Part shown: positions 1,603-27,306 of the stretch, one piece after another
Layout: every line of letters starts with the position of its first letter
Numbering within the stretch: position 1 is the stretch's first letter
Assembly (NCBI GenBank): GCA_905182635.1
Contig: CAJJCM010000016.1
Location: 1 to 32,330 of the forward strand
Direction: 5' to 3'
From: an uncultured Candidatus Poseidoniales archaeon
Lineage (GTDB): Archaea > Thermoplasmatota > Poseidoniia > Poseidoniales > Poseidoniaceae
DNA length: 32,330 nt
Made by a program: the position numbers and the translations under genes
The notes under the pieces: model-generated
The model's input: only the letters and a program-made list of their open reading frames with translations
Told to the model about the DNA's origin: nothing
The model's database searches: none

Positions 1603-1756
1603 TGTATCATCTCGGGATGTTGTGTTGCGGGGGCTACCCCACTTGCAAGTCGGCCACTGACCACCCCTATTTGAAGAAGCCTCTTTGTACAATTCAACAT
1701 CATCCGACATTTGTATTCAAATCAACGGTTCGATTCGGTAAACTCATGAGCATGAT
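1603..1756. promoter_or_regulatory. Divergent intergenic region between eS1 and the COG1325 gene
   Basis: This 154-bp gap must hold the promoters of both divergent genes. I see no unambiguous TATA box. An AT-rich stretch near 1710-1730 is the best candidate for the minus-strand (eS1) promoter. No RNA gene or clear hairpin was found. Confidence 0.35.
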
Positions 1757-2285: not shown

Positions 2286-4790
2286 ATGGATGTCAAGTTC
2301 AGCGCCGTCATACTCGCTCTGATGATGCTGACATGTTTGGCCGTCCTTCCTTCTGGCTCATCTTCTGTGAGCAAAGGTATCAACGAGCCTGCGAGTTGTC
2401 ATGCTGACCGAAATGATTCATGGACGATGGGCTTGCTCTCTTGTACCAATTCCACCAGCGCCGGTTTCACGCTCTTTTCACCTCTCCCTTCGAACACCAG
2501 TTACCTGATTGACAATCAGGGAAGAGAAGTCCATTCTTGGGCTTCACCAGGTGAACATCGACCGGGACTCTCTGCCTATTTACTCGAAGACGGTGATTTA
2601 CTACGAACCGCCAATATTGGTCAACAATCGGTTGGTGATTTCAGTGGCGGAGGCATTGCTGGAAAAATTGAACGCATCGCGTGGGACGGAACGGCTGAAT
2701 GGTCGTGGGAATACTCTTCGATGAATTCCATCACTCATCACGATATTGAACCAATGCCAAATGGAAATATTCTGGCGATTGCATGGGAGGATAAATCCGA
2801 GGCAGAAGCAACACAGGCTGGCCGGAATCCAGCCATTGCAAGCGATGCACCAGGCGGTAGCAGCAACGTCTGGCCCGACCAAATTATCGAAATCGAACCA
2901 CTCGCCAATAATCAAGCAAACATTGTGTGGCAATGGAATGCGTGGGATCATTTGATTCAAGACTATGATGCATCGGTCGACAACTTTGGAGTTGTCGGCG
3001 ACCATCCAGAATTACTCGATATCAACTTTGTCGATGCAACTGGAAACCAAGCAGGTCGAGCAGATTGGATGCATTGCAACGGTATCGATTACAATGCTGT
3101 TCTCGACCAGATTGTTCTGTCGTGTAAAAACATGAATGAAATCTACATTATCGACCACAGTACAACAACTGCTGAAGCATCTGGACATACCGGTGGCACC
3201 TCCGGCAAAGGTGGAGACTTCCTCTACCGATGGGGTAATCCACAAGCCTATGATGCTGGTCTATCCAGTGACCAACAATTGTTTGGCCAACATGATATCC
3301 AATGGATTGAACAGGGACGGGTTGGAGCAGGTGACCTCTTGGTGTTCAATAACGGTGGAGGGCGCTCTCCAAGTTATTCATCCGTCGATGTGATTCAGTC
3401 ACCCCTAAGCAATGGTGATTATCCACTTCAAGCAAATGGAACATGGGGCCCAAATGCACCGAATTGGTCTTGGAACATTGGTCAAGACATGTACGCTCAA
3501 TCTATTTCGGGAGCAGAGCGCTTGCCCAATGGAAACACATTGGTGACCTATGGAACGCAAGGTACACTCTACGAAGTCGATTTGAACGGTGGAATCGTGT
3601 GGAAATACATCAACCCGGTCTCGAACCAAGGCACACTTACTCAAGGAGATGAAATACCTGCAGGGAACAATGCAGGTTCAACGGCGAATCCAATTTTCAA
3701 GTCACGTCGATATGCCGAGGACCATTCTGCCTTCACCAACAAAGATATGACGCCAGGGGATTATCTCGAAACATGGACTGACTTTTGTCCAAATGAAGAA
3801 TCACTTCCATGGGATATCGATGGTGATGGGTGTATTGATGATTCCGATGGAGACAGCGTTAATGACCCTGATGATGTGTGCCAGGGATACGATGATTCTC
3901 TTGACAACGATAATGACGGGATACCGGATGGTTGTGACTCCTTTATCGACTCCGATAGCGATGGAGTCAGTGATACTATAGACTTGTGTCCCGGTTTTAA
4001 TGACCTGCTTGATTCGGATAATGATTCGATTCCAGATGATTGTGATTCACTCATTGATAGCGATTTTGACATGGTCTCTGATGTTCTTGACCAGTGCCCA
4101 GGATTCGATGACAGCCTCGATGCTGATAACGATTCGATACCCGACAATTGTGATGACTTAATCGACAATGACATGGATGGAATTGCCAACGACCTTGACC
4201 TTTGTGAAGGCTTTGATGATTCTTCGGACCGTGACGATGACGGAACCCCTGACGGGTGTGATGAAACACCGGATGGTGATGACCCCCCATCGAATACGAC
4301 CGACGAAAGTTCTGGAAATTTAACGAATGACGGTTTAGAGAATACTTCACAAGACACGAGCAATGTCTCGAATACTGATTCCGGTGATACGAGTGACGAT
4401 GGGGCTGAATCGCAGAGAGAAGTACAGTCAAATTTGGATGGTTCAAGTATTACTGCGCAATTGATTCTCTCGTTCATCTTGATATTTTCAGGGGCGTGGT
4501 TGTTGTTTTATCTGCTTGCGCATCGAGCCTTTTCCACCGAGAAACAAGATGAACAAATGAAATCTGATGTATTCTTCTATGAATCAGGAATCCAAGATTC
4601 AACTGCTCAGTTTGCACATGTCAGCACAATGATCGATTTGCCCTCTTTGGAACCAGTGTATGACTCAGTACCGTTTGCTCAACCAAATGTTGCCACGTCA
4701 CCGCCGTTACCTGCTGAAGGATTGCCGGAAGGATGGACGATGGAACAGTGGATATTTTACGGCCAACAGTGGCTCGATGCACAAAAATAA
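2286..4790 (+). CDS. Secreted arylsulfotransferase-like beta-propeller protein with TSP3 calcium repeats and C-terminal membrane anchor
   Basis: This 834-residue surface protein has a signal peptide (residues 1-30). A region of about residues 55-490 resembles the arylsulfotransferase (ASST, PF05935/PF14269) propeller fold: IDNQGREVHSW, a THHDIEPMPNGNILAI blade, a WMHCNGIDYN motif and repeated LPNGN turns. Four Asp-rich thrombospondin-type-3 units follow at about residues 510-666. Then come an acidic Ser/Thr linker, one TM helix (about 722-747) and a cytosolic tail ending in a GWTMEQW...YGQQWL motif (816-830). ASST enzymes move sulfate between phenols, but many propeller relatives have unknown activity, so catalysis is unproven. 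The protein is predicted to be exported and held by its C-terminus with a short cytosolic tail. Confidence 0.75.
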   Translation: MDVKFSAVILALMMLTCLAVLPSGSSSVSKGINEPASCHADRNDSWTMGLLSCTNSTSAGFTLFSPLPSNTSYLIDNQGREVHSWASPGEHRPGLSAYLLEDGDLLRTANIGQQSVGDFSGGGIAGKIERIAWDGTAEWSWEYSSMNSITHHDIEPMPNGNILAIAWEDKSEAEATQAGRNPAIASDAPGGSSNVWPDQIIEIEPLANNQANIVWQWNAWDHLIQDYDASVDNFGVVGDHPELLDINFVDATGNQAGRADWMHCNGIDYNAVLDQIVLSCKNMNEIYIIDHSTTTAEASGHTGGTSGKGGDFLYRWGNPQAYDAGLSSDQQLFGQHDIQWIEQGRVGAGDLLVFNNGGGRSPSYSSVDVIQSPLSNGDYPLQANGTWGPNAPNWSWNIGQDMYAQSISGAERLPNGNTLVTYGTQGTLYEVDLNGGIVWKYINPVSNQGTLTQGDEIPAGNNAGSTANPIFKSRRYAEDHSAFTNKDMTPGDYLETWTDFCPNEESLPWDIDGDGCIDDSDGDSVNDPDDVCQGYDDSLDNDNDGIPDGCDSFIDSDSDGVSDTIDLCPGFNDLLDSDNDSIPDDCDSLIDSDFDMVSDVLDQCPGFDDSLDADNDSIPDNCDDLIDNDMDGIANDLDLCEGFDDSSDRDDDGTPDGCDETPDGDDPPSNTTDESSGNLTNDGLENTSQDTSNVSNTDSGDTSDDGAESQREVQSNLDGSSITAQLILSFILIFSGAWLLFYLLAHRAFSTEKQDEQMKSDVFFYESGIQDSTAQFAHVSTMIDLPSLEPVYDSVPFAQPNVATSPPLPAEGLPEGWTMEQWIFYGQQWLDAQK
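3880..4262 (+). repeat. Four TSP3-like Asp-rich repeats, period about 108 bp (36 aa)
   Basis: Within the secreted protein, the unit G[YF][DN]D.LD.DND.IPD.CD..IDSD.DG.SD..D.CP recurs four times with a 36-residue period. The Cys spacing and DxDxDG loops are those of thrombospondin type 3 / calcium-binding repeats. The DNA copies have diverged but are recognisable. They probably form a calcium-stiffened stalk between the propeller and the membrane. Confidence 0.85.
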
Positions 4791-7575: not shown

Positions 7576-8583
7576 TCAGCGTCGACGAGTCGCATTCATG
7601 TCGACTTTCCGCATCGACTTTTTCTTGTCGGACTTGGCTTTTCTATTACTCGAAGAACTGTCGTCACCTTTACCAATTCCACCAAAGGTGATACCACCGG
7701 AAGTCAAGAGCGTTGAAATCAATTCATCCGCCACTTCTGCAGATTCAGCACCGGTTTTCATTTCGGCTTTGACTGAGGCATTGTGATCGGTCATCCATGA
7801 TTTCCTTTCATCACGGGCCATGTTCAACTTGTCACGAACTTTGTTGACATCGACCATCAATTCTTCGATTTTATTGTGCATATCGTCAGACTTTTGGCGC
7901 AGTTCGAGGAATTCAGTATGGAGGCGGTCACCTTCTGCCTTCAAGAAATCACGGTGTGAAAATGCTTCATCAACATCAGGTGACAGTACATCTGCTCGAG
8001 CGACTGCCAAAAGCATCTCTTGATGAGCAGCATCTGCTTCGGAGCGCAAGATTTTGATTGCTGCATCCATGTCAGAGAGGTCAACCTTAATCAATTCAAA
8101 GTGGGTGACTTCGGGGGCGAGTTCCTTAATCCGAAGGCTCATTTCCTTGATTTGCTTAATCATTTCTTTTTCCTTCTTTTGACTGACTGAAGAGGTTTCA
8201 AAAGTAGTCTCAAGTGATTGGACTTCATGTCGAAGTGTGGCGTATTCTGCAGTTGCAGATTTCTTTTCGCCTTTTTCATTACGTCGCCCTTTTGCCTGAT
8301 TGATAATTTCACGGAGTTGTTGTTGGAGGGCGTTGCGTTTTTCTTTGAACGTTTTGATTTCCAAACGTATTGCTTTCATTTCAGTCAAAACAAGGTCGAT
8401 TTTGTCTCGGTGTTCCTTGTATTGCCCTTGAACCGCATTGCGTTTATCGGCTATTGTCCGGGCCTGATCACTGAACGAATTCCGAGTATTTCTCATTTTT
8501 CGAACACGTGCTTCCATACCCTGTAGTTCTTCTTGAAGTTCCGAATCTTGACTCGGGGTTGCTTCATCAGGTCTTCCGCGCAT
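7576..8583 (-). CDS. COG1340-like archaeal coiled-coil protein (335 aa) with basic tail
   Basis: The sequence is almost entirely heptad-rich helix (ELQEELQGMEARVRKMRNTR.., KEKRNALQQQLREII, DAAHQEMLLAVARAD). This resembles the uncharacterised archaeal coiled-coil family COG1340. Residues 117-155 (LRHEVQSLETTFET...) align without gaps to blocks in two other proteins encoded here, at 13483-14331 and 17526-18416. A C-terminal segment (LISTLLTSGGITFGG, about 288-302) is followed by a Ser/Lys/Arg-rich tail (SDKKKSMRK...TRRR). The function is unknown; the basic tail suggests nucleic-acid or ribosome contact. It lies directly upstream of the nucleotidyltransferase (10-bp gap). Confidence 0.8.
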   Translation of the reverse strand: MRGRPDEATPSQDSELQEELQGMEARVRKMRNTRNSFSDQARTIADKRNAVQGQYKEHRDKIDLVLTEMKAIRLEIKTFKEKRNALQQQLREIINQAKGRRNEKGEKKSATAEYATLRHEVQSLETTFETSSVSQKKEKEMIKQIKEMSLRIKELAPEVTHFELIKVDLSDMDAAIKILRSEADAAHQEMLLAVARADVLSPDVDEAFSHRDFLKAEGDRLHTEFLELRQKSDDMHNKIEELMVDVNKVRDKLNMARDERKSWMTDHNASVKAEMKTGAESAEVADELISTLLTSGGITFGGIGKGDDSSSSNRKAKSDKKKSMRKVDMNATRRR

Positions 8584-8635
8584 ACATCGTGCAGAGAGTT
8601 GTCCATTTCAAATCTACCCATCAGGGAAAAGTGAA

Positions 8636-10159
8636 TTAAGCGCCAAGATTTCCGAAGATATCATTGATTTTAATGAAAAATCCAAGTGAGATTCCGAGGA
8701 TACCAATGAGATTCGTTGTGACTGAAGTGAAGTTTCGTATTCGCTCGAGATACTTCGTGCGAACTCGAACATTGATTTGCCGACCAAGAATCAAATCTCC
8801 ACTTTGTTCTTCGAGACGAACGGAGACCGTCGCTTCTCCAAAGCGTTCTGGAAGCAGCGATTGCCACGCGACGGTTCCATCTCGTAGCAACCCCGACATC
8901 AAACCAAGGATGTCATCGTCACCTTCAGCCGCAAGTGGCAGAGCCTTTGTCGACCACCAGTGGCGTTCTCCGGGATTCAAACGGTAGGTCATTGCTAAAT
9001 CGTGTGGACGGAAATCAGGAGATTGAACACGGAGGACAATGTTCCGAGGCGTATCAGAAAGGTTGTGAATCAGTGTGAACAGGTTCGCACGTCCGTGAAC
9101 AACGTTTTCCATATCAACTTCAAACACAATTCCTGGCGAGGTGCTTGAACGTCCAGCACCAAGATCTTCTTCGATTCGTCCAATCATTCGGAAGAAGGCG
9201 GGGCAAGAGCGTTCTATATGGTCGAGGATGGAAAGCCATTCTTCCATCGTGAAAATAGGGTGGTTTTGTACGAGTGCCATTCCTTGTTCGGTGAGAACTT
9301 CAGACAATTCAGATTCCATCGTTTTGAAGTCAAGACCTTTGGAGTGGCGATAGAGGGTCATCAAGATCTTTTCCCGAGCAAATTGAGGGTCGATTTCTTC
9401 CGTGTAACATTCTTCAATTTCCTTTGAGTACACTTCGTATTCAGAACGAAGTAAGGGGTCCATGTGCGTCTTAACTAAATCATTGAACACCATTTCCAAT
9501 GTCGATGGGTGAATCGGAGGCGTATACGCATCCAAGAGCCCTGTGCGCTCATCCATATTGAATGGTCGAGAGCGTGTTGGAATGTGTTGGCCAAGTGAAA
9601 GCAAGAGTGTTGAAAAAGACAGAAGGAGAAGAATCCGACCATTGAGTGAGGCGATGTCGAAGACAAAAATACAACCCAGTAACAAACTCGACATAATGGC
9701 AAACAAAAGTGACCATGAGTGTTTGGACCTCGCACTGATTAACAAGTCTGCAAGACTTTCATATCCATGCAAAGATTGTATTGAGAGGTGTTCTTGGTTC
9801 AATCGTTCAACTTCCGCTTCGAAGTTTCCAATTGACAATTCCACTCGGTGCCGGTGAAAGATTTGCACCAGAATATAACCGAGTAAGATAATGAACGTAA
9901 GGGTGATCAAAGCCATGGCAAAACTCATGTTGAGGGTCGGTTCGATTTTGGCCCACCACTGCGGGGAATTCGATGAAAAAGCGAGAGCTCCAAACGAAGT
10001 CAGAATGGAAAATGCCGGCAAAATAAGAATTAAGCGAAGGCCAAAACCGAGTAATTGCCGGTCTATAGCATACCAAAACCGTTCAGAGCGAAAGAGACTT
10101 TCATTCGAACTCTGCTCACTTTCGTGATTCGGCGGAGTGACGGATTCTGCCTCGACCAT
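8636..10159 (-). CDS. Membrane protein of unknown function with five predicted TM helices
   Basis: A ~507-residue protein. Four hydrophobic helices lie in the first ~200 residues (LGLRLILILPAFSILTSFGALAF, AMALITLTFIILLGYILVQIF, LLFAIMSSLLLGCIFVFDI, ILLLLSFSTLLLSLG). A soluble domain of about 280 residues follows, then one C-terminal helix (NLIGILGISLGFFIKI). Part of the soluble region (IVFEVDMENVVHGRANLFTLIHNLSDTPRNIVLRVQSP) reads like a beta-sandwich. No family recognised. An alternative GTG start at 10177 would add six residues; neither start has a clear ribosome binding site, so the ATG is preferred. It lies 36 bp downstream of the DtxR-type regulator, in line with it, and may share its operon and metal regulation. 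Confidence 0.75.
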   Translation of the reverse strand: MVEAESVTPPNHESEQSSNESLFRSERFWYAIDRQLLGFGLRLILILPAFSILTSFGALAFSSNSPQWWAKIEPTLNMSFAMALITLTFIILLGYILVQIFHRHRVELSIGNFEAEVERLNQEHLSIQSLHGYESLADLLISARSKHSWSLLFAIMSSLLLGCIFVFDIASLNGRILLLLSFSTLLLSLGQHIPTRSRPFNMDERTGLLDAYTPPIHPSTLEMVFNDLVKTHMDPLLRSEYEVYSKEIEECYTEEIDPQFAREKILMTLYRHSKGLDFKTMESELSEVLTEQGMALVQNHPIFTMEEWLSILDHIERSCPAFFRMIGRIEEDLGAGRSSTSPGIVFEVDMENVVHGRANLFTLIHNLSDTPRNIVLRVQSPDFRPHDLAMTYRLNPGERHWWSTKALPLAAEGDDDILGLMSGLLRDGTVAWQSLLPERFGEATVSVRLEEQSGDLILGRQINVRVRTKYLERIRNFTSVTTNLIGILGISLGFFIKINDIFGNLGA

Positions 10160-10195
10160 GGAATGTCCAAGAATCACTCACACTAAAGCATTACA

Positions 10196-10867
10196 TCAAT
10201 CCGTAGCACGAGAGATACGAACAAGAAGTTTTGATGCTAAGTCGGAGGAGAAATTCGCTTCTGACATTCCCGCAATCGAATAGCCACTGGAAGTTCGAGT
10301 CATCTGCGCACCGATGAGAACCCCGTGTTGAGACATGAAATGAGCCTCCTCGTCATCGAGAAACATCGCTTCAAGCGTACCAGTCGTACCCTTCTCTAAG
10401 CGCTCGAGCGAAATCAGTTGAGTCTGAGAGGAACGAATACGTGATGATATTTCACTTGATGCTTGAGGTATATCACGACCACTTGGGTCCAACTGGGGTT
10501 GGCCAAGGAGCAGCGATAAAGCAACTTCCAAATCATCATCAATGGCGTGTTCCAAACGGCATGCTGTAGCATGTGTGTTGCCTTGAAACGAGAGACTTTC
10601 AAGAAAGACTTCGGCCAAACGATGGCGTCGTTTCATTTTCTGACCATGTATCATACCTTCATCGGTCAATAATGCGCCTTTGTAGGGGACATAATCTATC
10701 AGGCCTTTTGCCGCCAATCGCTGAACCATTTCAGTTGCAGACGCGGGAGAGACTCTCAAAGCACTGGCTAAATCCCCATTGCGTACCCGTTGAGAGGGCT
10801 GTTTCTCAAAAAACTCATACATCATCTCAAGGTACTCATCTTCAAATTCTCGGAAATGACCGTTCAT
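10196..10867 (-). CDS. DtxR/MntR-family metal-dependent transcriptional repressor
   Basis: N-terminal winged helix (residues 7-65: YLEMMYEFF..., RNGDLASALRVSPASATEMVQRLAAKGLIDYVPYKGALLTDEG), then the metal-binding/dimerisation domain RRHRLAEVFLESL...ACRLEHAIDDDL, and a ~75-residue C-terminal domain that fits the FeoA/SH3-like third domain of DtxR. Candidate ligands by alignment to remembered family members are E11, H82, E86, C103, E106 and H107. C103 is as in iron-sensing DtxR, while the acidic residue before Tyr12 is as in MntR, so Fe versus Mn is open. GGAGGGG precedes the start by about eight bases. It starts 16 bp after the stop of the large secreted protein gene, so the two are very probably one operon. 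Confidence 0.9.
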   Translation of the reverse strand: MNGHFREFEDEYLEMMYEFFEKQPSQRVRNGDLASALRVSPASATEMVQRLAAKGLIDYVPYKGALLTDEGMIHGQKMKRRHRLAEVFLESLSFQGNTHATACRLEHAIDDDLEVALSLLLGQPQLDPSGRDIPQASSEISSRIRSSQTQLISLERLEKGTTGTLEAMFLDDEEAHFMSQHGVLIGAQMTRTSSGYSIAGMSEANFSSDLASKLLVRISRATD

Positions 10868-10883
10868 GAATTACCCCTCCGAA

Positions 10884-13391
10884 TCAGTCCGTACTCTTCT
10901 GTTCAGCAGAAAAAACTTCCTCACAGGCAGGACATCGTACAGAACCTGTATACGTTTCAGGAATCCGGAGAGATTGATCACATTCAGGGCAATGGAGTTC
11001 AACCTTTCCATCACTTTCGACTTCTTGACTTTCCTCTTCAACCTCACTTTCTTCACGCAAAGGCTCGGTGCGAGGGGTGACGTCAAATCGGTTCGAGCAA
11101 TCTGGGCAACGTACTTGGCCGCCATAATCCGAAGGTACTCGTAATTGTCGAGCGCATTCTGGACAACCGACCTGAATCTTTTCAACATTCTCGGAACGAG
11201 CCTTTCCGTTCGACTTTAAATGTGATGTATCCTTTACCGGCTTGGACTTTGAAGAGTCAATTTGGCGGTTTTGATAAATTCGAATGAAAGCACCGATACC
11301 TACCGCAGCCATCAACCCACCGAAGATTCCGACCCAAGGAATGGAAAAGGATGCTTCTTCAACGATGACTTCACCAGATTGGAACGTGTTTATTGCATCA
11401 AAACTCTCATCGCTAACAACCCATGTTGCTTTGAGCGAAACCGATTGATAATTCGGCCATACAAATGTAAATTGATACTCCTCTTGGGAAAGCGAGGGTA
11501 TTGCTAGCGTCGATTGTTGACCCAAAAAGGCTCCATCAAGTGTTGAGACCACGATGTATCCTGCTCTTCCATCAGCGTCACCTGAATTGCTAACGCGTAC
11601 TGTTATGGAACCTGATTCACCGGGTATCGGGCGATTCGGAACCGAAATTGGTTCGAATTCCAAGGTATAGGATGGCCGCTCATCAGGCACGCTAAGGCTA
11701 TAACTCGAAAAGCCAAAGCCGGTTGTCCAGTTCACTGGAGTCGCCCGTATTGAAACTCGCTCAGCATCAACAAAACCAATGATGAGGGTACCTGTAGAGA
11801 CACCAGGGGCGAGTTCTACCACATAATCGAGTGGATAGGTGTCCAATCCTGAATCCGTATATCCAAGTCGGAATCGGACTGGTCGGTCAATACCTTCACT
11901 CATTTCAAGTGACCATGAAAATTGGATGCCAATTTCAGCATCCCAAGTGACTGAAGTCACCTTTGGAGTAAGCGTTTGTTGAATCGCCACAGGAACAAGA
12001 ATTGTCCCGTTAAGACCTGCATCGATTGAACCATCAGAAGAACTGAGAGACCAGTTCACCTCTTGTTGACCTTCAATGGCCAACGGTACTTCGACGGTCA
12101 TTTCACCTGCAGCATCAATGTCGAGCATCAGTTCATTACTGGTGTAGGCCATGCCGTTTGTTTCACACACAAGTTGCACAGTACCCGGTAATTCGCCATG
12201 GTTCCGAATCAACATCGAAAAGACGGCTATGTCTCCTTTGTGCCAAGGTCCATTGAGAAGAGCTGGAATACTTGAACCCGCAGATTCAAAAGCGGCGGAT
12301 TCAACATCATGTGCGAGAGAAATATCGGTGATGGACGCATCATTCACCCGCATGCCACTCACCGAACATGCGAGTAGATCAGGTCGGGAAGTCGAGAAAA
12401 GAGATTCTATAATGGAGGATTGAAGTAGGACTTGGATTTGAGTATCAAATAGAATTTGGCTACCAAAAGAGCATACGAGGAGTCCACTGTAGTTGAGTGA
12501 ACCGGTATTTGAAATGTTCAAATCCCAAGCGATCTCATCACCGGCAAGTACGTCGGGGGTGAGAAGTTCGAGCGCAAGTGAGAGTAAAGGCAAAGGCGGC
12601 GGAGCGACTTCAAACGTGATTTGGCGAGTCTCATCGGTGGTATTGCCATCTCCCGAGTCGTTTAATTGCAACACAAGAGTAGAGGTTCCTTCGTAAACAG
12701 CAATGGTGCTGTTCACTTGAACGACCGTGCTTGAAAGAGGCGCAACAGTGACAAGCGATGAAGTTTGATTATCATATACTCCATTTGAAAAGAGTGATGA
12801 AGTAAGGTGACCTGACCATGAAAAATCACCATTGTTAATGACTGCAGTTTCAGTTTGTAAATAATCCCCGTCATGAATCGAGACGTTTCCAGTGAGAGCA
12901 CCTTCGGGTGTAAGGCCATTCAAGAGAACTTGACCTGGGCTTGCCAAAGAGATTTCAATCGGTTGTAAACGGTGAAGCGTTCTGTTCAAAGTAAGTGCCT
13001 GGGTTGAATTTGGCGAACCGAGTTCACCGACCAATTCGACACCGATCTGAGTGTATCCAAATGGAATCGATGTCAAATTAAACTGAAGCACTTGGCTTGA
13101 ATCCGCAGCAAGTGTAAAGTTTTGACTCATCGAATCAAATACTGTACCTTCAAGGGTTGAGAGTTCAATTCTTGCTTCGACATCTGCGTCACTCGAAAGT
13201 AATTCGATGACTGTGAATTCGAGGTCATAGGATGATTGTTCAGTGGTGGCGAAATCTTGAAGTGAGAACGTGCTTACATCGATTACTGCGCCACCACCGC
13301 TGGCACTTACCAGTGGCAAAAGGAAGGTTGCAAATAAGGCCGATAAGCAGAAAGCAACGACCTTCGAATTGCCTGACTGCCCCCTGCCCAT
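10884..13391 (-). CDS. Large secreted Ig-like surface protein with one TM helix and two cytosolic zinc ribbons
   Basis: 835 residues. The N-terminus is a signal peptide (KVVAFCLSALFATFLLPLVSASG). About 640 residues of beta-rich sequence follow, with many N-x-S/T sites and CARDB/Ig-like patterns (GSITVRVSNSGDADGRAGYIVV, WDLNISNTGSLNYSG). One TM helix is at about 686-706. The predicted cytosolic tail carries two near-identical zinc ribbons, Cys743/746/762/765 and Cys801/804/820/823, both CxxC-x15-CxxC with CPEC...VRCP.C, joined by an acidic linker. Zinc ribbons on the cytosolic side of a cell-surface protein suggest metal sensing or protein/nucleic-acid contact. The gene is first in an apparent operon with the DtxR-type repressor. 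Confidence 0.8.
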   Translation of the reverse strand: MGRGQSGNSKVVAFCLSALFATFLLPLVSASGGGAVIDVSTFSLQDFATTEQSSYDLEFTVIELLSSDADVEARIELSTLEGTVFDSMSQNFTLAADSSQVLQFNLTSIPFGYTQIGVELVGELGSPNSTQALTLNRTLHRLQPIEISLASPGQVLLNGLTPEGALTGNVSIHDGDYLQTETAVINNGDFSWSGHLTSSLFSNGVYDNQTSSLVTVAPLSSTVVQVNSTIAVYEGTSTLVLQLNDSGDGNTTDETRQITFEVAPPPLPLLSLALELLTPDVLAGDEIAWDLNISNTGSLNYSGLLVCSFGSQILFDTQIQVLLQSSIIESLFSTSRPDLLACSVSGMRVNDASITDISLAHDVESAAFESAGSSIPALLNGPWHKGDIAVFSMLIRNHGELPGTVQLVCETNGMAYTSNELMLDIDAAGEMTVEVPLAIEGQQEVNWSLSSSDGSIDAGLNGTILVPVAIQQTLTPKVTSVTWDAEIGIQFSWSLEMSEGIDRPVRFRLGYTDSGLDTYPLDYVVELAPGVSTGTLIIGFVDAERVSIRATPVNWTTGFGFSSYSLSVPDERPSYTLEFEPISVPNRPIPGESGSITVRVSNSGDADGRAGYIVVSTLDGAFLGQQSTLAIPSLSQEEYQFTFVWPNYQSVSLKATWVVSDESFDAINTFQSGEVIVEEASFSIPWVGIFGGLMAAVGIGAFIRIYQNRQIDSSKSKPVKDTSHLKSNGKARSENVEKIQVGCPECARQLRVPSDYGGQVRCPDCSNRFDVTPRTEPLREESEVEEESQEVESDGKVELHCPECDQSLRIPETYTGSVRCPACEEVFSAEQKSTD

Positions 13392-13482
13392 ACGATTCCC
13401 TCTACACGGGGGTTCTTCACTTTCACGCCAAAAGAAGTCGCTACACCATGTTTATTGAAGGTTGGAGGCTGGCGCACCTTGT

Positions 13483-14331
13483 ATGCGTCCGGAAGAGTTG
13501 CTTGAAATGACTCCAGCCCTACTGGCGAAGTCAATTTTGCACCGGCGCGAACGTCTTGCTGAAACCATTCCTGAACAACTCGATGCTCGCCAAGAAGAAC
13601 TACGAGCAGCCGAACCACTTGCTCGCAGTGCAAAGGAACAACGTGATGGTATAAACGCTAAAGTGGCGAACTTGAAAAAAGAACGAAACGCTTCACGAAT
13701 GACCGCTCAAAAACTGTATCAAGAAGGTGGAGAACTCCGTGATAAAATCTCTTCATCGGGTGGTGTTCAAAAGTCGAACCCTGAATGGGCCCAAAACAAG
13801 CTCAATGATAAATTGAAAGCTCTGGAACATGAACTCGAAACAAATTGGGGAGATCACAAAACTGAACAAAAGTTCCTCACTGAAATGAAATCTCAAATCC
13901 GTCAGCATGAAGAATGGGTCGGAAACCGAACCGATAACCAAGAAGAACATGCACTCATGACAACAAAATTCGCCGAAGCAAGAAAACATCTTGAGGTCGC
14001 TGAAAAGGCACACAAAGCGCTTCTCGACCACGCATCAGAAAATGAGTATTTTCACAACACCTACCTCGAACAAGAATCACATCGCCGCAGAGCCGATGCA
14101 AGAACCAAGCGCCTTGCTCAGGCCCTCGATAGCAGTCAAAGAGGCATCGAACACTGGCAAAAGCACATTGATGAAGGGTTTGACCAACTGTTGACGAACT
14201 CAAAGCGTGTTGAAAATGGAGAACCTTCAAGCCACGCCCGAAGAAGACAACAAAAATCGCCCGAAAAGAAGAAACAATCGCCCTCGAGTCGAAATAAGAA
14301 AAAGCAACAACCACGAGGTGAGGAAGAATGA
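13483..14331 (+). CDS. COG1340-like coiled-coil protein with basic tail, coupled to the TUTase gene
   Basis: 282 residues from ATG 13483 (a TTG at 13462 would add seven residues; GGAGG at 13464 lies upstream of the ATG). Residues 20-230 are charged helix with heptads (RQEELRAAEPLARSAKEQRD, KVANLKKERNASRMTAQKL). Residues 107-145 (LNDKLKALEHELET...) align without gaps to blocks in the 335-aa and 296-aa coiled-coil proteins. The tail is extremely basic (HARRRQQKSPEKKKQSPSSRNKKKQQ) and suits RNA binding. The stop overlaps the next start as ATGA, so this gene and the nucleotidyltransferase are translationally coupled and their products probably act together. Function unknown. Confidence 0.8.
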   Translation: MRPEELLEMTPALLAKSILHRRERLAETIPEQLDARQEELRAAEPLARSAKEQRDGINAKVANLKKERNASRMTAQKLYQEGGELRDKISSSGGVQKSNPEWAQNKLNDKLKALEHELETNWGDHKTEQKFLTEMKSQIRQHEEWVGNRTDNQEEHALMTTKFAEARKHLEVAEKAHKALLDHASENEYFHNTYLEQESHRRRADARTKRLAQALDSSQRGIEHWQKHIDEGFDQLLTNSKRVENGEPSSHARRRQQKSPEKKKQSPSSRNKKKQQPRGEEE

Positions 14332-16508
14332 GCGATGAATGTGAAATCACAGGATTCACCCCTCAACAACAAGGCCGTTGGCCCTTGGTCCACCAACATC
14401 TATGTGACCAACTTGAATTACCCAACGGTGAAGCAATTTCTGCTGAAGCAATAGAAAAATTATCCCACGATTTGGAAAATACCCTCAAAGTCCAAAGTGC
14501 AAACCAATCAGCCCTCAAAAAGAGAAATGGACTTTTTGAACACCTAAAGCGTAGCATCGAATCAAAATTCAAAGGCAGTTCACTGCGAAGATTCGGTTCA
14601 TCGGAATCTGGACTTTCACTTGCCCATGGCGATTTGGATTTATGTCTCTTATTCGAGGGGCAAAAGCCGAAGAAAATACTTCGTTCGATTTCAAGTATGC
14701 TTCGATTCCAAGAAATGGAGGATATCCTGGTGATTACTTCTGCCAAAGTTCCGATCATCAAATTTGTCGATGAACGAACAAAAATCCCTGTGGACATTTC
14801 AATTAACAATACCTTAGCCCTCCACAATACTACGTTGTTGAAACGCTATGCTGAAACTGATGAGCGTATCCGTCAGTGTATTCTCGGCATCAAATATTGG
14901 GCATCTCAACGAGATGTCTGTGATGCAGCAAAGGGTACCTTCTCTTCGTATGCATGGACTCTTATCATGCTCCAAGCATTACAAACGACAACACCGAGTG
15001 TTGCACCAAATATTCAATCAGGTAAGACACGAACTCATCTCAAAGTTGAAGGAATCGAATATGACCTTACCATGGCGGATGAACCTCAACAACTCCTTAC
15101 AGAAACCAACACTCAATCACTTGGAGAATTGATGACTCATTGCTTCCGTCAATTGGTCCTTGAACGACCATGGGAGCAGCATGTTCTTTCGATTCGAAAT
15201 GGGAAGCCGCTGACTCGTAAAGAAAAGAAATGGAACTACGCAAAGCCGCATGCAGCAAAGGCTGTGGTGATGGATGGAAAGAACCGTTTGGGTTTGCATT
15301 CGTTTCCTGTTGAAGACCCTTTCAATCATGACCATGACCTCAGTCGAGTCTTGCGCCCAGATGGAGCTTTAGATATCCAAGAGGAATTGTTCCGGTTTTG
15401 GATCGGGCTCAATGAAGGAAAAACGCTCAACCAGTTATGTGAACTGAAAAATCCTGAACGGATTCAAGTGATTGTCGAAAAAGACTTGTTTGAAGATTTA
15501 AGAAAACTTCCGAAGTCTGAGGTTGACACAATGCTCAAGGAAAATGCGGTTAAACACTCTGATTTAGAAGAACGTATAGAGGCACTTAACGGTGAAAGAC
15601 AAAACAACATTAAGATCTCACAAGCACTTCGAGGACTGTTTGAAGAGACAAGCGGACTTCGTAATGAACATCGGACTCTGGTCAGAAGTCTACGCCCCCG
15701 AAGCCAAAAGATGGACCTCTTGCAAAAGGAACGTGATGAATTGAATCAGAAAATTGGCATTCCATTGTATCGGATTCGTGAATTACTGGTTGAAGTCTAT
15801 ACCAACCTTACGGGGGATATTGATTTCTTCCATGTCCCATCGTTGCAAAGAGAAGATGAACAATTCGCATGGTTCTTTGAATTGCAAGCCATGCATGCTG
15901 TTGCTCTAAAAGCAGATACAGCACACAAAGAATTCATCGTGTTGGTCCGTGAACAAAAGAAGGCTGTCAAGGAATTGAAAATCACGGAGACCAAACAAAC
16001 TAAAATTCGTACTGAACTGATTGAATCAGAACCAATACTTGCAAACATTACGACTGAATTCAGTGAAGCACGGCAATTTGACCAAAATGCACACTCATTA
16101 AACAAAGTGATTCAAGGACGACGAAAAGAACTTCGACATCTGCGCAGAGAAAAAGGCAGGCTTGAGGCTTGGCTTCGTGTTTCGACCCGTAGTACTCCAA
16201 CCCGTGATTCAAAACCAAGAGGTAAAAAGAAAGACAGAGGCTCAAAATCTGGTCAAGCAGATTGGGCACCTCGCAACAACGGCCCAAGAGCAGAAGAAGT
16301 TCAACAGCGCGCGGCGACTGGAGGCACATTATCGCTTTCTGATCTCGATGTATTGTTGAACAGTGGAGGTTTGGCATCGGTTAACAAATCCAAACCAACT
16401 CCAAAAACAGCTCGACGTGCAGACCGAAAAAAGAAACAGAACTCCGTTCGTCAACTTACCGCCCAACGCGGTGAGCGGTCCCAATCGAAAAAGGGTCACA
16501 AAGAATGA
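14328..16508 (+). CDS. Cid1/TUTase-like terminal nucleotidyltransferase (non-canonical poly(A)/poly(U) polymerase) with coiled-coil C-terminus
   Basis: 726 residues. The catalytic nucleotidyltransferase domain (about 65-210) has the polymerase-beta helix-turn signature FGSSESGLSLAHGDLDLCL (G90-S91, D102, D104) and the third aspartate in PVDISINN (D156). IRQCILGIKYWASQRDV and GTFSSYAWTLIMLQAL follow, as in Cid1/Trf4 enzymes. A PAP-associated region (about 264-345) has SLGELMTHCFRQL..., VLSIRNGKPLTRKEKKW and VEDPFNHDHDLSR. H336 aligns with the Cid1 histidine that selects UTP. Residues 380-640 form a long coiled-coil region, and the end is a basic tail with a short GGTLSLSDLDVLL element (665-678). 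It should add non-templated U (or A) to RNA 3' ends. GAGGTGA six bases upstream is the ribosome binding site. Archaeal class I CCA-adding enzymes are a different family. Confidence 0.88.
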   Translation: MSDECEITGFTPQQQGRWPLVHQHLCDQLELPNGEAISAEAIEKLSHDLENTLKVQSANQSALKKRNGLFEHLKRSIESKFKGSSLRRFGSSESGLSLAHGDLDLCLLFEGQKPKKILRSISSMLRFQEMEDILVITSAKVPIIKFVDERTKIPVDISINNTLALHNTTLLKRYAETDERIRQCILGIKYWASQRDVCDAAKGTFSSYAWTLIMLQALQTTTPSVAPNIQSGKTRTHLKVEGIEYDLTMADEPQQLLTETNTQSLGELMTHCFRQLVLERPWEQHVLSIRNGKPLTRKEKKWNYAKPHAAKAVVMDGKNRLGLHSFPVEDPFNHDHDLSRVLRPDGALDIQEELFRFWIGLNEGKTLNQLCELKNPERIQVIVEKDLFEDLRKLPKSEVDTMLKENAVKHSDLEERIEALNGERQNNIKISQALRGLFEETSGLRNEHRTLVRSLRPRSQKMDLLQKERDELNQKIGIPLYRIRELLVEVYTNLTGDIDFFHVPSLQREDEQFAWFFELQAMHAVALKADTAHKEFIVLVREQKKAVKELKITETKQTKIRTELIESEPILANITTEFSEARQFDQNAHSLNKVIQGRRKELRHLRREKGRLEAWLRVSTRSTPTRDSKPRGKKKDRGSKSGQADWAPRNNGPRAEEVQQRAATGGTLSLSDLDVLLNSGGLASVNKSKPTPKTARRADRKKKQNSVRQLTAQRGERSQSKKGHKE

Positions 16509-16517
16509 GGCGATTAC

Positions 16518-16994
16518 ATGGGCAACATCCAGTGGATGTATGGTGATGAGCCGAAAAACCTCTCTGATAACTTGAAAGAGCGAATTAGGTCGATATTTTT
16601 CAATGAGACCGGAGAAGAATATACCCTCGATTCAATATCGAATTTACCAATTCCAAAGTGGGGTGGAAACATGTTGCTCATCGACCAAGAAGAATATCCA
16701 GCACCCGAATCAATCTTGGGTGTTCTTTGGGCCTTACCCCATGAAGAGAGTGGTGTCCGGATTGCAGCCTTTGTCCTCGATGCAAACCATCAGTCATGTG
16801 GGTGGGGTGGCAAAGCTTGGGAGCATTTGATTGAAATTTCTCTTTCGGAGGGGAAAACCACCATCCAATTAGAAGTGAAAGCGGAAAATACTCGTGCTCA
16901 AGAATTCTATAAATCAAGAGGCTTAGCCGTTATTCGCCATCTTCCACGCTATTATAGTTCAGGAATTGGTTATGAAATGAAAGGGCCATTGTGA
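16518..16994 (+). CDS. GNAT-family N-acetyltransferase
   Basis: 158 residues. Acetyl-CoA-binding motif A is seen as AAFVLDANHQSCGWGGKAWEHL (Q92..G95-W-G97-G98). The C-terminal GNAT half is IQLEVKAENTRAQEFYKSRG, resembling RimI/ribosomal-protein-type acetyltransferases, ending in a GIGYEM strand. Substrate unknown; a protein N-terminus or lysine is possible. GAGGCGAT precedes the ATG by six bases, and the gene starts 9 bp after the TUTase stop. Its own stop overlaps the next start as GTGA. The gene order suggests cotranscription with the TUTase. Confidence 0.85.
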   Translation: MGNIQWMYGDEPKNLSDNLKERIRSIFFNETGEEYTLDSISNLPIPKWGGNMLLIDQEEYPAPESILGVLWALPHEESGVRIAAFVLDANHQSCGWGGKAWEHLIEISLSEGKTTIQLEVKAENTRAQEFYKSRGLAVIRHLPRYYSSGIGYEMKGPL

Positions 16995-17386
16995 AGGTTC
17001 GAATCATTCAGATTTCGGCACTGGCAAAGGTCAAAGGTTATGCTCCCCCATCTCTAGCAGAGCGTGTGGAACAGCGTTTGCTTGGAGAAATAGCAGCACA
17101 GCGCGGTGTTACCGGTGTTGCCTTACTCGATGGTGATGGGTTTGTTTTGTTCACAGAACCTCAACATGATGATTCAGTTCAAAACCTCGCTAAAGCGATT
17201 GCTTTACTCGACCCAAAATTTTCGACAGGACGTGTAACCTTAAACGGTGAAAACGGCACTGTTTTGGTCCAAGAATTACTTGGCGGGAAGGTGTTGGTAC
17301 TACGATGCGAAGTTTCATCAAATCTTGGCCGCATCCGTCAAGTTCTCGATACAGCAACATCTCAATTGAATGCTCTCCAGCCTTAA
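16991..17386 (+). CDS. Roadblock/LC7-like domain protein
   Basis: 131 residues starting at GTG inside the GNAT stop (GTGA overlap). The pattern GVTGVALLDGDGFVLFTE, VLVQELLGGKVLVLRCEVSSNLGRIRQVLDTATSQL fits the Roadblock/LC7 fold: helix, five-strand sheet, long C-terminal helix after a SNLG turn. In archaea and bacteria such proteins dimerise and act as partners or GAP-like regulators of small GTPases (the MglB type) or as scaffolds. No GTPase gene is next to it. The N-terminal 25 residues (MKVRIIQISALAKVKGYAPP) lie outside the core. Confidence 0.72.
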   Translation: MKVRIIQISALAKVKGYAPPSLAERVEQRLLGEIAAQRGVTGVALLDGDGFVLFTEPQHDDSVQNLAKAIALLDPKFSTGRVTLNGENGTVLVQELLGGKVLVLRCEVSSNLGRIRQVLDTATSQLNALQP

Positions 17387-17525
17387 CAGGGCTCATCTCA
17401 GTTGCCGGCGACCGATTCCTCTTCAGTCTAGAATCTAAACCGTCCTGTGAAGGGATTAAATGGGAAGGGTCGGTCGCAAGTCCAGTGAGAAGATGGGAAT
17501 CTTCCACTGACCAGGCGAGATACGA
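17387..17525 (+). ncRNA. Structured leader or candidate small RNA upstream of the 296-aa coiled-coil gene
   Basis: This 139-bp gap has strong potential RNA structure. One outer inverted repeat pairs GCGACCGA (17408-17415) with TCGGTCGC (17470-17477), and CTTCA (17421-17425) can pair with TGAAG (17448-17452) inside it. A second stem-loop follows at 17483-17509. No ORF fills the gap. It may be a 5' leader with regulatory structure or a processed RNA. No box C/D or H/ACA signature could be assigned with confidence. Confidence 0.45.
17483..17509 (+). promoter_or_regulatory. Stem-loop with GNRA-type tetraloop just upstream of the coiled-coil gene
   Basis: CAGTG (17483-17487), a bulged A (17488), GAAGAT (17489-17494), loop GGGA (17495-17498), ATCTTC (17499-17504) and CACTG (17505-17509) give 11 perfect pairs with one bulge. 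The hairpin ends 16 bases before the ATG at 17526 and could block or organise ribosome entry or bind a protein. Confidence 0.6.
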
Positions 17526-18416
17526 ATGGATGAACTCAAGATTCAACTCGAAGAACGACGAAAGATGGTTGATGAAAAAGCCACAAAATACCGAATTCTT
17601 CGTGATGAGTGCAACGACAACTCCAAGAAGTTCACAATCACTCGAAACGAAATGAACGGCGATGTCCGTGAATTGATTGTTCAAGTTCGAGAACAGCGTG
17701 AAATCCGTGAACAGATGAATGAAATTGTTCGAGATAAGAAGGCTGTTCGGCAAGAAGCGAACAAACTCGTTCGTGAATCAAAAGACGCTCTGAATTTGGC
17801 CAAAGGCCCTGAAGCCGTACAAGAACAACGGAATGATGGCCGTAGAGGTCGTCAAGACCGACCGGATACAATTCATTCACTCCGCCGTGAGTTAATGCGC
17901 TTGGAAAATGAATTCGAGATGGGTCGCCACACTGGGAAAAACGAAACGAAAGTGATGAAGTTGATGAAGGAAAAAAGTGCCCTCATTAAGAAGATGAAGA
18001 ATTCTGAAGATTCCAATACCGGTCTTAAAGATTCACGTGAAACTTTGCGAATGGCCATGGAGGCTCAAGAAACTGCACATGGTGCAGTTGAACAAGCTGC
18101 TGAAGCCGCACAAGAGGCTCACGATTTGATGCTCCAATGGAATAAAGAAGTCGACAACCAACGAGAGAAGGCTGAGTCTGCTCACCGAAAACTCCGTGGA
18201 TCGAAGAAAGATGCTGATAAGAATCACCGAGCCTACATTGTATCACTCCGTTGTTTGCACTCAATCCAAGACATTCTCCGTGCAATGCGTGGAGCAAACG
18301 CTGGCGCAGGTCAACGACCTTCGGCTCGTGTTGAAGTTCAAGATTTGATGAGCAAGTTGATGTCGGGTGAAACACTCTCTACTGACGAATTGCTACAACT
18401 TCAGCGTTACGACTGA
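17526..18416 (+). CDS. COG1340-like coiled-coil protein (296 aa)
   Basis: Nearly all helix and highly charged. Segments such as REQREIREQMNEIVRDKKAV and a run ETAHGAVEQAAEAAQEAHDLM followed by AESAHRKLRGSKKDADKNH resemble the archaeal COG1340 coiled-coil family. Residues 119-157 (LRRELMRLENEFEM...) align without gaps to the 335-aa and 282-aa coiled-coil proteins. The C-terminus, LMSKLMSGETLSTDELLQLQ, matches the short C-terminal module of COG1340 proteins and resembles the one in the TUTase. The gene follows the Roadblock gene after a structured 139-bp gap. Function unknown; it may be a scaffold or ribosome/RNA-associated factor. Confidence 0.82.
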   Translation: MDELKIQLEERRKMVDEKATKYRILRDECNDNSKKFTITRNEMNGDVRELIVQVREQREIREQMNEIVRDKKAVRQEANKLVRESKDALNLAKGPEAVQEQRNDGRRGRQDRPDTIHSLRRELMRLENEFEMGRHTGKNETKVMKLMKEKSALIKKMKNSEDSNTGLKDSRETLRMAMEAQETAHGAVEQAAEAAQEAHDLMLQWNKEVDNQREKAESAHRKLRGSKKDADKNHRAYIVSLRCLHSIQDILRAMRGANAGAGQRPSARVEVQDLMSKLMSGETLSTDELLQLQRYD

Positions 18417-26676: not shown

Positions 26677-27306
26677 TCATTGAGTATCATCAGGTGAAAA
26701 GACTGCAGGGTCCGGTCCGATTGGAAGTTCTTCAAGTTCGAGCGCAGTTAATTCCCGTTCGGATGCATCTCCATCGATAATCATTGAATGGCCATGTGGG
26801 TCTAAAAGTTCGATTGTGAACACGCTTTCTTCACCTGCTTGTTCGATTGATTTGAGTAAGGAGTTGAGGGTCGCAAGAGATTCCTTACTCTCAAGGTCGT
26901 CCTGTTCTGAATCGAGGGCAATATCTCTTTCAACATCTCGGCGAACCATATTGATGATGTCAACAAAGCGATTCAATACACCTTCTATGTTGCTTACATA
27001 ACCTGTTGAATTGGTGCCTGGCATCACTTCAAGGTCCAATTCAGGGATTTTGACGGTGCATGAAGATGAGCGAACCACCCGTGAGCGTAGTTTCTTGCTG
27101 TCATCCAAAACCAACGACCATGCACCTGCCTTCTTTCCTTCTGCGGGAATAAAATCAGTTTGGCGCCAGCCGCAGGCATGGCACAGTACCGTCACTTGAG
27201 TATGTTCACCAAAATAGGGTATTTCATCGACATTGGTAACCATTCCAAGTTGCCCTTCAACGGCGCAAATCGGGCAAGGGATCTCAATTGGTTGTTCATT
27301 CAACAC
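26677..27306 (-). CDS. ZPR1-family zinc-finger protein
   Basis: 209 residues starting at GTG 27306, two bases after the sepF stop. A C4 zinc ribbon, CPIC...CHACGW, is followed by the ZPR1 beta domain: TNVDEIPYFGEHTQVTVLCHACGWRQTDF, RSRVVRSSSCTVKIPELDLEVMPGTNSTGYVSNIEGVL. Archaeal members have one zinc-finger/beta-domain module where eukaryotic ZPR1 has two; eukaryotic ZPR1 is a chaperone for eEF1A. An extended acidic C-terminus is present. Role in archaea not established; a link to aEF1A folding is an inference. Confidence 0.88.
   Translation of the reverse strand: MLNEQPIEIPCPICAVEGQLGMVTNVDEIPYFGEHTQVTVLCHACGWRQTDFIPAEGKKAGAWSLVLDDSKKLRSRVVRSSSCTVKIPELDLEVMPGTNSTGYVSNIEGVLNRFVDIINMVRRDVERDIALDSEQDDLESKESLATLNSLLKSIEQAGEESVFTIELLDPHGHSMIIDGDASERELTALELEELPIGPDPAVFSPDDTQ

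What the first reader, a model, noticed from the sequence alone, without database searches (positions are those of the whole stretch)
14328..16508. Eukaryote-type TUTase / non-canonical poly(A) polymerase in an archaeon
The protein has every hallmark of Cid1/Trf4 enzymes: G90-S91, the D102-x-D104 pair, D156, the KYWA..R..GTFSSYAW helix pair, and a PAP-associated region ending VEDPFNHDHDLSR. In fission yeast Cid1 the sequence EDPFxxxH contains H336, which selects UTP over ATP; here a histidine sits at the same spacing after EDPF. The prediction is therefore an RNA 3' uridylyltransferase. Archaea add A-rich tails with the exosome or not at all, and I know of no characterised archaeal TUTase. The gene is fused to ~260 residues of coiled coil and a basic tail.
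Basis: partly seen in the sequence, partly recalled or inferred. Interest (0 to 1): 0.92.

Follow-up and report, generated by a model that had tools for sequence, protein, structure and literature searches.

The report
RNA-tailing enzyme in marine archaea
A family of ocean archaea carries a eukaryote-like enzyme predicted to add U letters to the ends of RNA, joined to an older archaeal coiled-coil protein, which suggests that these microbes may mark RNA in a way so far known from eukaryotes.

The parts
14328..16508 (+). TUTase-family nucleotidyltransferase fused to a coiled coil and basic tail, 726 aa
14427..15455 (+). catalytic module, residues about 34-376 (palm/fingers plus PAP-associated domain)
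   Evidence: aligned model ranges of about 31-378 against URT1, TUT7, CutA, Cid1
14631..14639 (+). D102-x-D104 metal-binding pair
   Evidence: present in 87 of 92 distinct orthologs, one X, four lost
14793..14795 (+). third catalytic aspartate D156
   Evidence: 88 of 92 D, four R
15333..15335 (+). base-selecting residue H336 (position of Cid1 H336 and CutA R557)
   Evidence: of 88 orthologs outside the dead clade: 77 H, 7 R, 3 L/V/I, 1 truncated; roles in PMC4357723 and PMC7498324 (passages)
15489..16187 (+). coil region, residues 388-620, beginning at the DLFxDLR motif; homologous to the stand-alone protein in the same slot of enzyme-less genomes
16188..16505 (+). low-confidence basic tail, residues 621-726, with a conserved 'SGGxLSLxDLDxLL' stretch
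13462..14331 (+). coilB: coiled-coil gene directly upstream (longest ORF; true start may be later); its stop overlaps the enzyme's start codon by 4 bases (ATGA)
   Evidence: same strand in 107 of 107 loci holding coilB and a slot gene, 4-bp overlap in 82
16518..16994 (+). GNAT acetyltransferase, syntenic downstream gene
16991..17386 (+). weak Roadblock/LC7-like protein (below the Pfam cut-off), found in 63 of 97 enzyme loci
17526..18416 (+). coilC: DUF7121 coiled-coil protein, probably of the same superfamily as the enzyme's coil
   Evidence: PF23435 1e-12; hhalign
7576..8583 (-). coilA: coiled-coil protein, probably of the same superfamily, syntenic

Best explanation
It is a catalytically competent RNA terminal nucleotidyltransferase of the Cid1/URT1/TUT4-7 branch, most likely a uridylyltransferase. 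An ancestor within one family of Poseidoniales (Poseidoniaceae by the record titles) probably obtained the catalytic module from a eukaryote and fused it in frame to the N-terminus of an existing coiled-coil gene that is translationally coupled to a second coiled-coil gene (coilB). I propose that the coil works together with coilB and, with the basic tail, docks the enzyme on an RNA-protein complex (ribosome-bound or messenger RNA is the first guess), where D102/D104/D156 catalyse untemplated addition of one or a few U to 3' ends and so prepare them for 3'-5' decay by the exosome or an RNase R-type enzyme. Shown by computation: family, fold, intact active site, fusion to a protein that stands alone elsewhere, gene order, distribution. 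Inferred: single origin, eukaryotic source, activity, U preference, partner, target and the decay outcome.
Against: No biochemistry and no RNA 3'-end data. The base-selecting residue varies (7 R, 3 aliphatic, of 88). The catalytic domain is missing from 22 of 28 g2 genomes and its triad is lost in the four g11 sequences read, so tailing is dispensable. The enzyme's own tree is unresolved at depth and separates the dead g11 copies from all active ones in only 4% of bootstrap trees, unlike the neighbour-gene tree; g11's branch is extremely long (4.6), so I give this little weight, but transfer into g11 is not excluded. The decay link is weak: the RNase R-type gene is in 0 of 2 g7 and 6 of 23 g4 genomes that have the enzyme, and in g2 genomes without it. 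Similarity of the enzyme's coil to coilB was not detected (hhalign 6%), so pairing rests on gene coupling alone. The eukaryotic source is inferred from distribution; the tree held only three eukaryotic sequences.
Confidence: 0.7

Rival explanations
1. It is a tailing enzyme of the same family but not U-specific: it adds A (GLD2-like), C (CutA-like) or mixed tails.
For: GLD2 and CutA align almost as well. CutA keeps a nearly identical pocket with Arg at the 336 position and prefers C; Cid1 H336A/N becomes a poly(A) polymerase (PMC7498324 passages). 7 of 88 orthologs have R336 and 3 have L/V/I.
Against: The window protein and 77 of 88 orthologs have the histidine of UTP-selecting enzymes; TUT4 or URT1 is the top match in three searches with different queries.
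Confidence: 0.2
2. The coiled coil is the functional core (a scaffold with coilB) and the nucleotidyltransferase domain is an accessory that need not be catalytic.
For: The coil slot is found in both families of the order, while the enzyme domain is missing from 31 of 145 genomes of its own family that have the coil; the four g11 sequences read lost all three aspartates yet keep the architecture, with dN/dS 0.119 in the domain for the one pair computable.
Against: 87 of 92 distinct orthologs (one more unreadable) keep the triad over identities down to 35%, which selection for catalysis best explains.
Confidence: 0.1
3. It acts on tRNA 3' ends as a substitute CCA-adding or CCA-repair enzyme.
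For: The archaeal class I CCA enzyme (TIGR03671) was found in 0 of 17 genomes.
Against: A PF01743 (class II-type) nucleotidyltransferase is in 19 of 20 genomes with and without the enzyme; the miss is the window's own, 66% complete genome. H336 would favour U, not C then A.
Confidence: 0.04
4. It is a defence or toxin nucleotidyltransferase (mobile or oligonucleotide-signal type).
For: The nucleotidyltransferase fold is common in such systems (recalled). coilB has a weak PADLOC match to LmuB (4.4e-4, 16.6 bits), probably a coiled-coil effect.
Against: No PADLOC or PHROGs match for the protein, no relative in phage records or confirmed in viral contigs, fixed neighbourhood, PAP-associated domain present.
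Confidence: 0.02

Closest known systems
URT1 (UTP:RNA uridylyltransferase 1, Arabidopsis; PDB 7xs4, 6l3f)
   Different: 28% identity; no archaeal coil; eukaryote
TUT7/TUT4 catalytic module (human)
   Same: Best sequence match; catalytic motifs; IEDPFDLNH in TUT4
   Different: TUT4/7 carry a second nucleotidyltransferase-like module that also aligns weakly, and zinc knuckles (recalled); here one module plus coil and basic tail
Cid1 (fission yeast)
   Same: Single-module TUTase; H336, D330 and the Asn hinge match by spacing
   Different: Stand-alone enzyme without the coil (recalled)
CutA (fungal tailing enzyme preferring cytosine)
   Different: The window protein has His, not Arg
COG1340 / DUF7121 coiled-coil proteins of archaea
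   Same: The coil is probably of this superfamily (hhalign 78-82% to coilC, 83-94% to coilA; at most 13% in block-shuffled columns of those pairs)
   Different: No DUF7121 match of its own; function unknown (PMC1322226, passage)

Membership tests
TUTase / non-canonical nucleotidyltransferase (Cid1-like) family | GS motif and three catalytic aspartates | tested here: met
   G90, S91, D102, D104, D156 in the window protein; triad in 87 of 92 distinct orthologs, one X, four lost
TUTase / non-canonical nucleotidyltransferase (Cid1-like) family | PAP-associated domain (PF03828) after the palm | tested here: met
   27.2 bits against cut-off 22.6; 57 bits in ortholog L033
TUTase / non-canonical nucleotidyltransferase (Cid1-like) family | Fold of the two-lobed catalytic module | tested here: met
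Pfam TUTase domain PF19088 | Score above the curated cut-off | tested here: not met
   18.8 bits against 25.8; ortholog L033 22.8
Uridylyltransferase subgroup | Histidine at the Cid1 H336 position | tested here: met
   Present in the window protein and 77 of 88 orthologs outside the dead clade; 7 R, 3 L/V/I, 1 truncated
Uridylyltransferase subgroup | UTP-preferring untemplated addition to RNA 3' ends | not testable with these tools
   Needs purified protein
COG1340/DUF7121 coiled-coil superfamily (C-terminal half) | Profile similarity beyond coiled-coil composition | tested here: inconclusive
   hhalign 78.5% to coilC and 93.8% to coilA (83 columns), 6% to coilB; shuffles of these pairs at most 3.4% for the enzyme's coil, but shuffled copies of its true homolog still score 88-98%, and no unrelated coiled coil was used as control; no DUF7121 match
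Class I CCA-adding enzyme | Match to the archaeal CCA-adding family TIGR03671 | tested here: not met
   No NCBIfam family at E 0.01 for the protein; TIGR03671 found nothing in the genome
Anti-phage defence nucleotidyltransferase | Match to a known defence family | tested here: not met
   No PADLOC match at E 0.01 for the protein

The most novel reading that the evidence does not exclude
Poseidoniaceae evolved their own uridylation-dependent RNA decay: a eukaryote-derived TUTase grafted onto an archaeal RNP-binding coiled-coil pair, feeding an RNB-type 3'-5' exonuclease confined to the same clade, a parallel of the eukaryotic TUTase-DIS3L2 pathway, with natural His-to-Arg switches that change the tail from U to C or A in some lineages and a derived pseudoenzyme in another.
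Probability: 0.25. Interest if true: 0.92.

Novelty: new variant of a known kind. Interest (0 to 1): 0.82.

Why it matters
RNA uridylation is treated as a eukaryotic trait (recalled, in line with the reviews listed), and archaeal tails are described as A-rich products of the exosome (abstract starts of PMC4227792 and PMC7667871). A TUTase fixed in a group of ocean archaea would make untemplated U-tails testable in a prokaryote, in principle in existing metatranscriptomes. The set of natural states (coil alone, coil plus enzyme, coil plus dead enzyme) and the H/R variation at the base-selecting residue give ready-made proteins for testing what the fusion adds and what sets base choice.

Tried and rejected
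Contamination or mis-binning: judged unlikely from gene order in 97 of 97 enzyme loci and a single-contig genome, itself a metagenome assembly. Viral origin: no relative in phage records; in viral contigs 10 pattern hits, none confirmed, in a scan that relies on two peptide patterns; no PHROGs family. Wider distribution: of 292 genomes across the phylum, 32 strong matches, all in the window's family, plus 7 weak ones (E 3.4e-6 to 9.2e-4, within the first 82 profile positions), perhaps CCA enzymes by frame length, not tested. A second PF03828 hit in the window's own genome is below the cut-off and has stops in frame. CCA role. Strict coupling to an RNB exonuclease: rejected; that protein is RNase R-type, not DIS3L2-type, by best match. 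A function for the coil from the literature: COG1340 is described as archaeal proteins of unknown function (PMC1322226, passages); a guessed link to yeast Bfr1 found no support in the listing (12 of 232 papers shown) and is dropped. No paper naming an archaeal TUTase was seen in the listings (open-access library; 76 showed 15 of 17 papers, 85 10 of 15, 86 10 of 76; 35, 75 and 98 returned none) nor in the passages read from PMC11646218 and PMC4442281. The VIA-align table shows no class I CCA enzyme or OAS among its 50 rows, which proves no absence.

Sensitivity notes: the neighbour-gene trees warn of long branches (g9, several of family f2). The place of g9 rests alone (quick search). Without g9 and one f2 row the split of active clade against g6+g10+g11 stands, the latter group at 87/69 to 90/80. 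The single gain is the fewest-changes reading; the enzyme tree does not confirm it. The 'fused' label in the census is by frame length of 560 aa or more, not by reading each sequence.

Full report
Observation. Pfam places MTPAP-like_central (5.3e-30), NTP_transf_2 (7.2e-7) and PAP_assoc (4.7e-6) above their cut-offs; the Pfam TUTase model PF19088 stays below its own. Sequence search of solved structures gives TUT4 1.6e-43, TUT7, URT1 9.2e-36, CutA and Cid1 5.8e-31; a profile of 22 orthologs ranks TUT4, TUT7, URT1, CutA, Cid1, GLD2, and a distant ortholog has URT1 on top. In the profile alignment the histidine of EDPFxxxH lines up with that of URT1 and TUT4.

Host and distribution. The window is contig 16 of a 66.5%-complete 1.33-Mb genome. 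In the order, 103 of 292 genomes match; all 103 rows are of the window's family (f1), none of the second family (f2). Across the phylum, 32 strong matches of 292 genomes lie in f1 and 7 weak partial ones elsewhere. A two-pattern scan of the species-genome collection confirmed 108 relatives; the 80 kept are titled Poseidoniales, Poseidoniaceae or Poseidonia, or only Euryarchaeota archaeon or euryarchaeote; 28 were not shown. One is CM001443.1, a single 2.06-Mb contig; four kept records lacking the MAG tag bear names that look like single-cell genomes (my inference). That f1 is Poseidoniaceae rests on these titles; f2 as Thalassarchaeaceae is recalled.

Gene order. In 97 enzyme loci (88 distinct enzyme sequences) there is no break of order or strand among the genes held: NTPt, coilA, w8636, DtxR, w10884 on one strand and coilB, enzyme, GNAT, Robl, coilC, PurP-like on the other; 65 loci hold at least 10 of these 11 genes, others end at contig ends, and Robl is found in 63. 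With the 13 enzyme-less loci added, coilB and the slot gene lie on the same strand in 107 of 107 loci holding both, with a 4-bp overlap in 82. This points to translational coupling.

The fusion. I fetched the slot from 13 genomes without the enzyme: five of f2, five of genus g2, one each of g6, g9 and g10. In 13 of 13 it holds a shorter protein (252-436 aa) matching only the C-terminal part of the full-length profile (from position 373 on; E 4e-91 to 5e-17), directly after coilB; further downstream the order is not always kept (in L156 coilC and PurP are inverted; in L148-L150 GNAT and Robl are missing). The DLFxDLR-like motif that follows the enzyme's catalytic module was found by pattern in four of the 13 (7, 19, 35 and 91 residues in) and by eye as SLFADLR in two more. 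In f1, 145 of 170 genomes match the coil profile: by frame length, 103 carry the fusion, 5 are contig-end fragments, 6 are the g11 form and 31 are coil-only (22 of 28 in g2, 2 of 2 in g6, 5 of 5 in g9, 2 of 2 in g10). A quick tree of seven neighbour genes puts f2 outside, then g9 (long branch), then splits g6+g10+g11 from a clade with all active fusions, coil-only g2 nested inside. Careful trees of four neighbour genes keep the last split (active clade 100/99; g6+g10+g11 87/69, or 90/80 without two long rows). The simplest reading is one fusion in the family, decay in g11, and domain loss in g6/g10 and once or twice in g2. Against it, the enzyme's own tree leaves deep forks open and separates g11 from all active copies in only 4% of bootstrap trees; g11's branch is 4.6 changes per column long, so its place there is unreliable. 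The archaeal copies as a whole are split from three eukaryotic ones at 100/99.

Active site across orthologs. Among 92 distinct sequences, D102/D104 are present in 87 (one more is X) and D156 in 88; four g11 sequences lost all three (G, E, R) but keep the length. Two further g11 genomes were not read. At position 336, of the other 88, 77 have H, 7 R, one each L, V and I, and one is truncated. From passages read: Cid1 H336 selects uracil and its change to Ala or Asn gives a poly(A) polymerase (PMC7498324; PMC4357723); CutA has Arg557 there and prefers C, and its R557H change raises U inclusion without removing the C preference (PMC7498324); GLD2 lacks the histidine and uridylates without UTP selectivity (PMC7470959). 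So the window enzyme is predicted to use UTP, with the caution that this one residue does not fix base choice alone, while R336 forms may not. dN/dS of the catalytic module is 0.057, 0.063 and 0.090 in three active pairs and 0.119 in one g11 pair; one active and one g11 pair were saturated.

The coil. hhalign links the enzyme's coil to coilA (93.8%, 83 columns) and coilC/DUF7121 (78.5%, 165 columns), against at most 3.4% in four block shuffles each, but not to coilB (6%); coilB is linked to coilA (96%) and coilC (94%). Shuffled copies of the true homolog (coil-only set) still scored 88-98%, and no unrelated coiled coil was tested, so I call this probable, not shown. One paper describes COG1340 as archaeal proteins of unknown function (PMC1322226); that COG1340 and DUF7121 are one family is recalled. 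Pairing with coilB is inferred from coupling alone.

What it may feed. RNase PH-family (exosome-type) proteins are in 16 of 16 genomes. An RNB exonuclease, RNase R-type by best match though below the family cut-off, is in 106 of 170 genomes of f1, in 6 of 11 genera, all inside the active clade, and in 0 of 4 genomes of f2. Among genomes with the coil: g1 42 of 53, g2 21 of 28, g3 12 of 15, g4 6 of 23, g5 7 of 8, g8 1 of 1, and g6, g7, g9, g10, g11 0 of 17 together. This overlap follows the clade and is suggestive only: the enzyme occurs without the RNase (g7, most of g4) and the RNase without the enzyme (g2).

Rivals. A CCA role is unlikely: TIGR03671 is missing from 17 of 17 genomes, but a PF01743 enzyme is in 19 of 20 irrespective of state. 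Defence or viral roles lack support. A scaffold role of the coil is likely true in addition, but does not explain the kept active sites.

Verdict. The finding holds and is richer than stated: a TUTase-family enzyme, predicted uridylyltransferase, fixed in one family of marine archaea and joined to an archaeal coiled coil that stands alone elsewhere. Searches of an open-access library showed no description of an archaeal TUTase (listings). It is a new variant of a known enzyme kind; its biochemical function is open.

Noticed in passing
L039, L040, L041, L050 (genus g11): Full-length orthologs that lost all three catalytic aspartates but keep coil and tail: a likely natural pseudoenzyme; two further g11 genomes were not read.
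   Followed up: partly
[quoted passage not shown] a PF01743 class II-type nucleotidyltransferase in 19 of 20, the miss being the incomplete window genome.
   Followed up: partly
L170 4876-7263 (-): RNase R-type exonuclease, by eye close to NusG-like and ribosomal protein genes, found in six of the family's eleven genera.
   Followed up: partly
601-1710 (-): Ribosomal protein S3Ae with a Lys/Pro/Ala-rich linker and a C-terminal SAP domain (PF02037 1.5e-12).
   Followed up: no
26677-27306 (-): ZPR1 jelly-roll domain protein (PF22794 8.7e-19), a family known to me mainly from eukaryotes (recalled).
   Followed up: no
2286-4790 (+): Arylsulfotransferase-like protein (PF05935 4e-20) with Asp-rich repeats seen by eye.
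   Followed up: no
7576-18416: Four coiled-coil proteins, probably of one superfamily, within 11 kb and conserved in order across the family.
   Followed up: partly
G505:C56:555-1559 (L158): An RNB match much stronger than the others in the family (2.8e-112 against 1.7e-86 for the next), possibly a different copy or a foreign contig.
   Followed up: no
L093: One enzyme copy is split over two frames (564 and 104 aa); decay or sequencing error not told apart.
   Followed up: no
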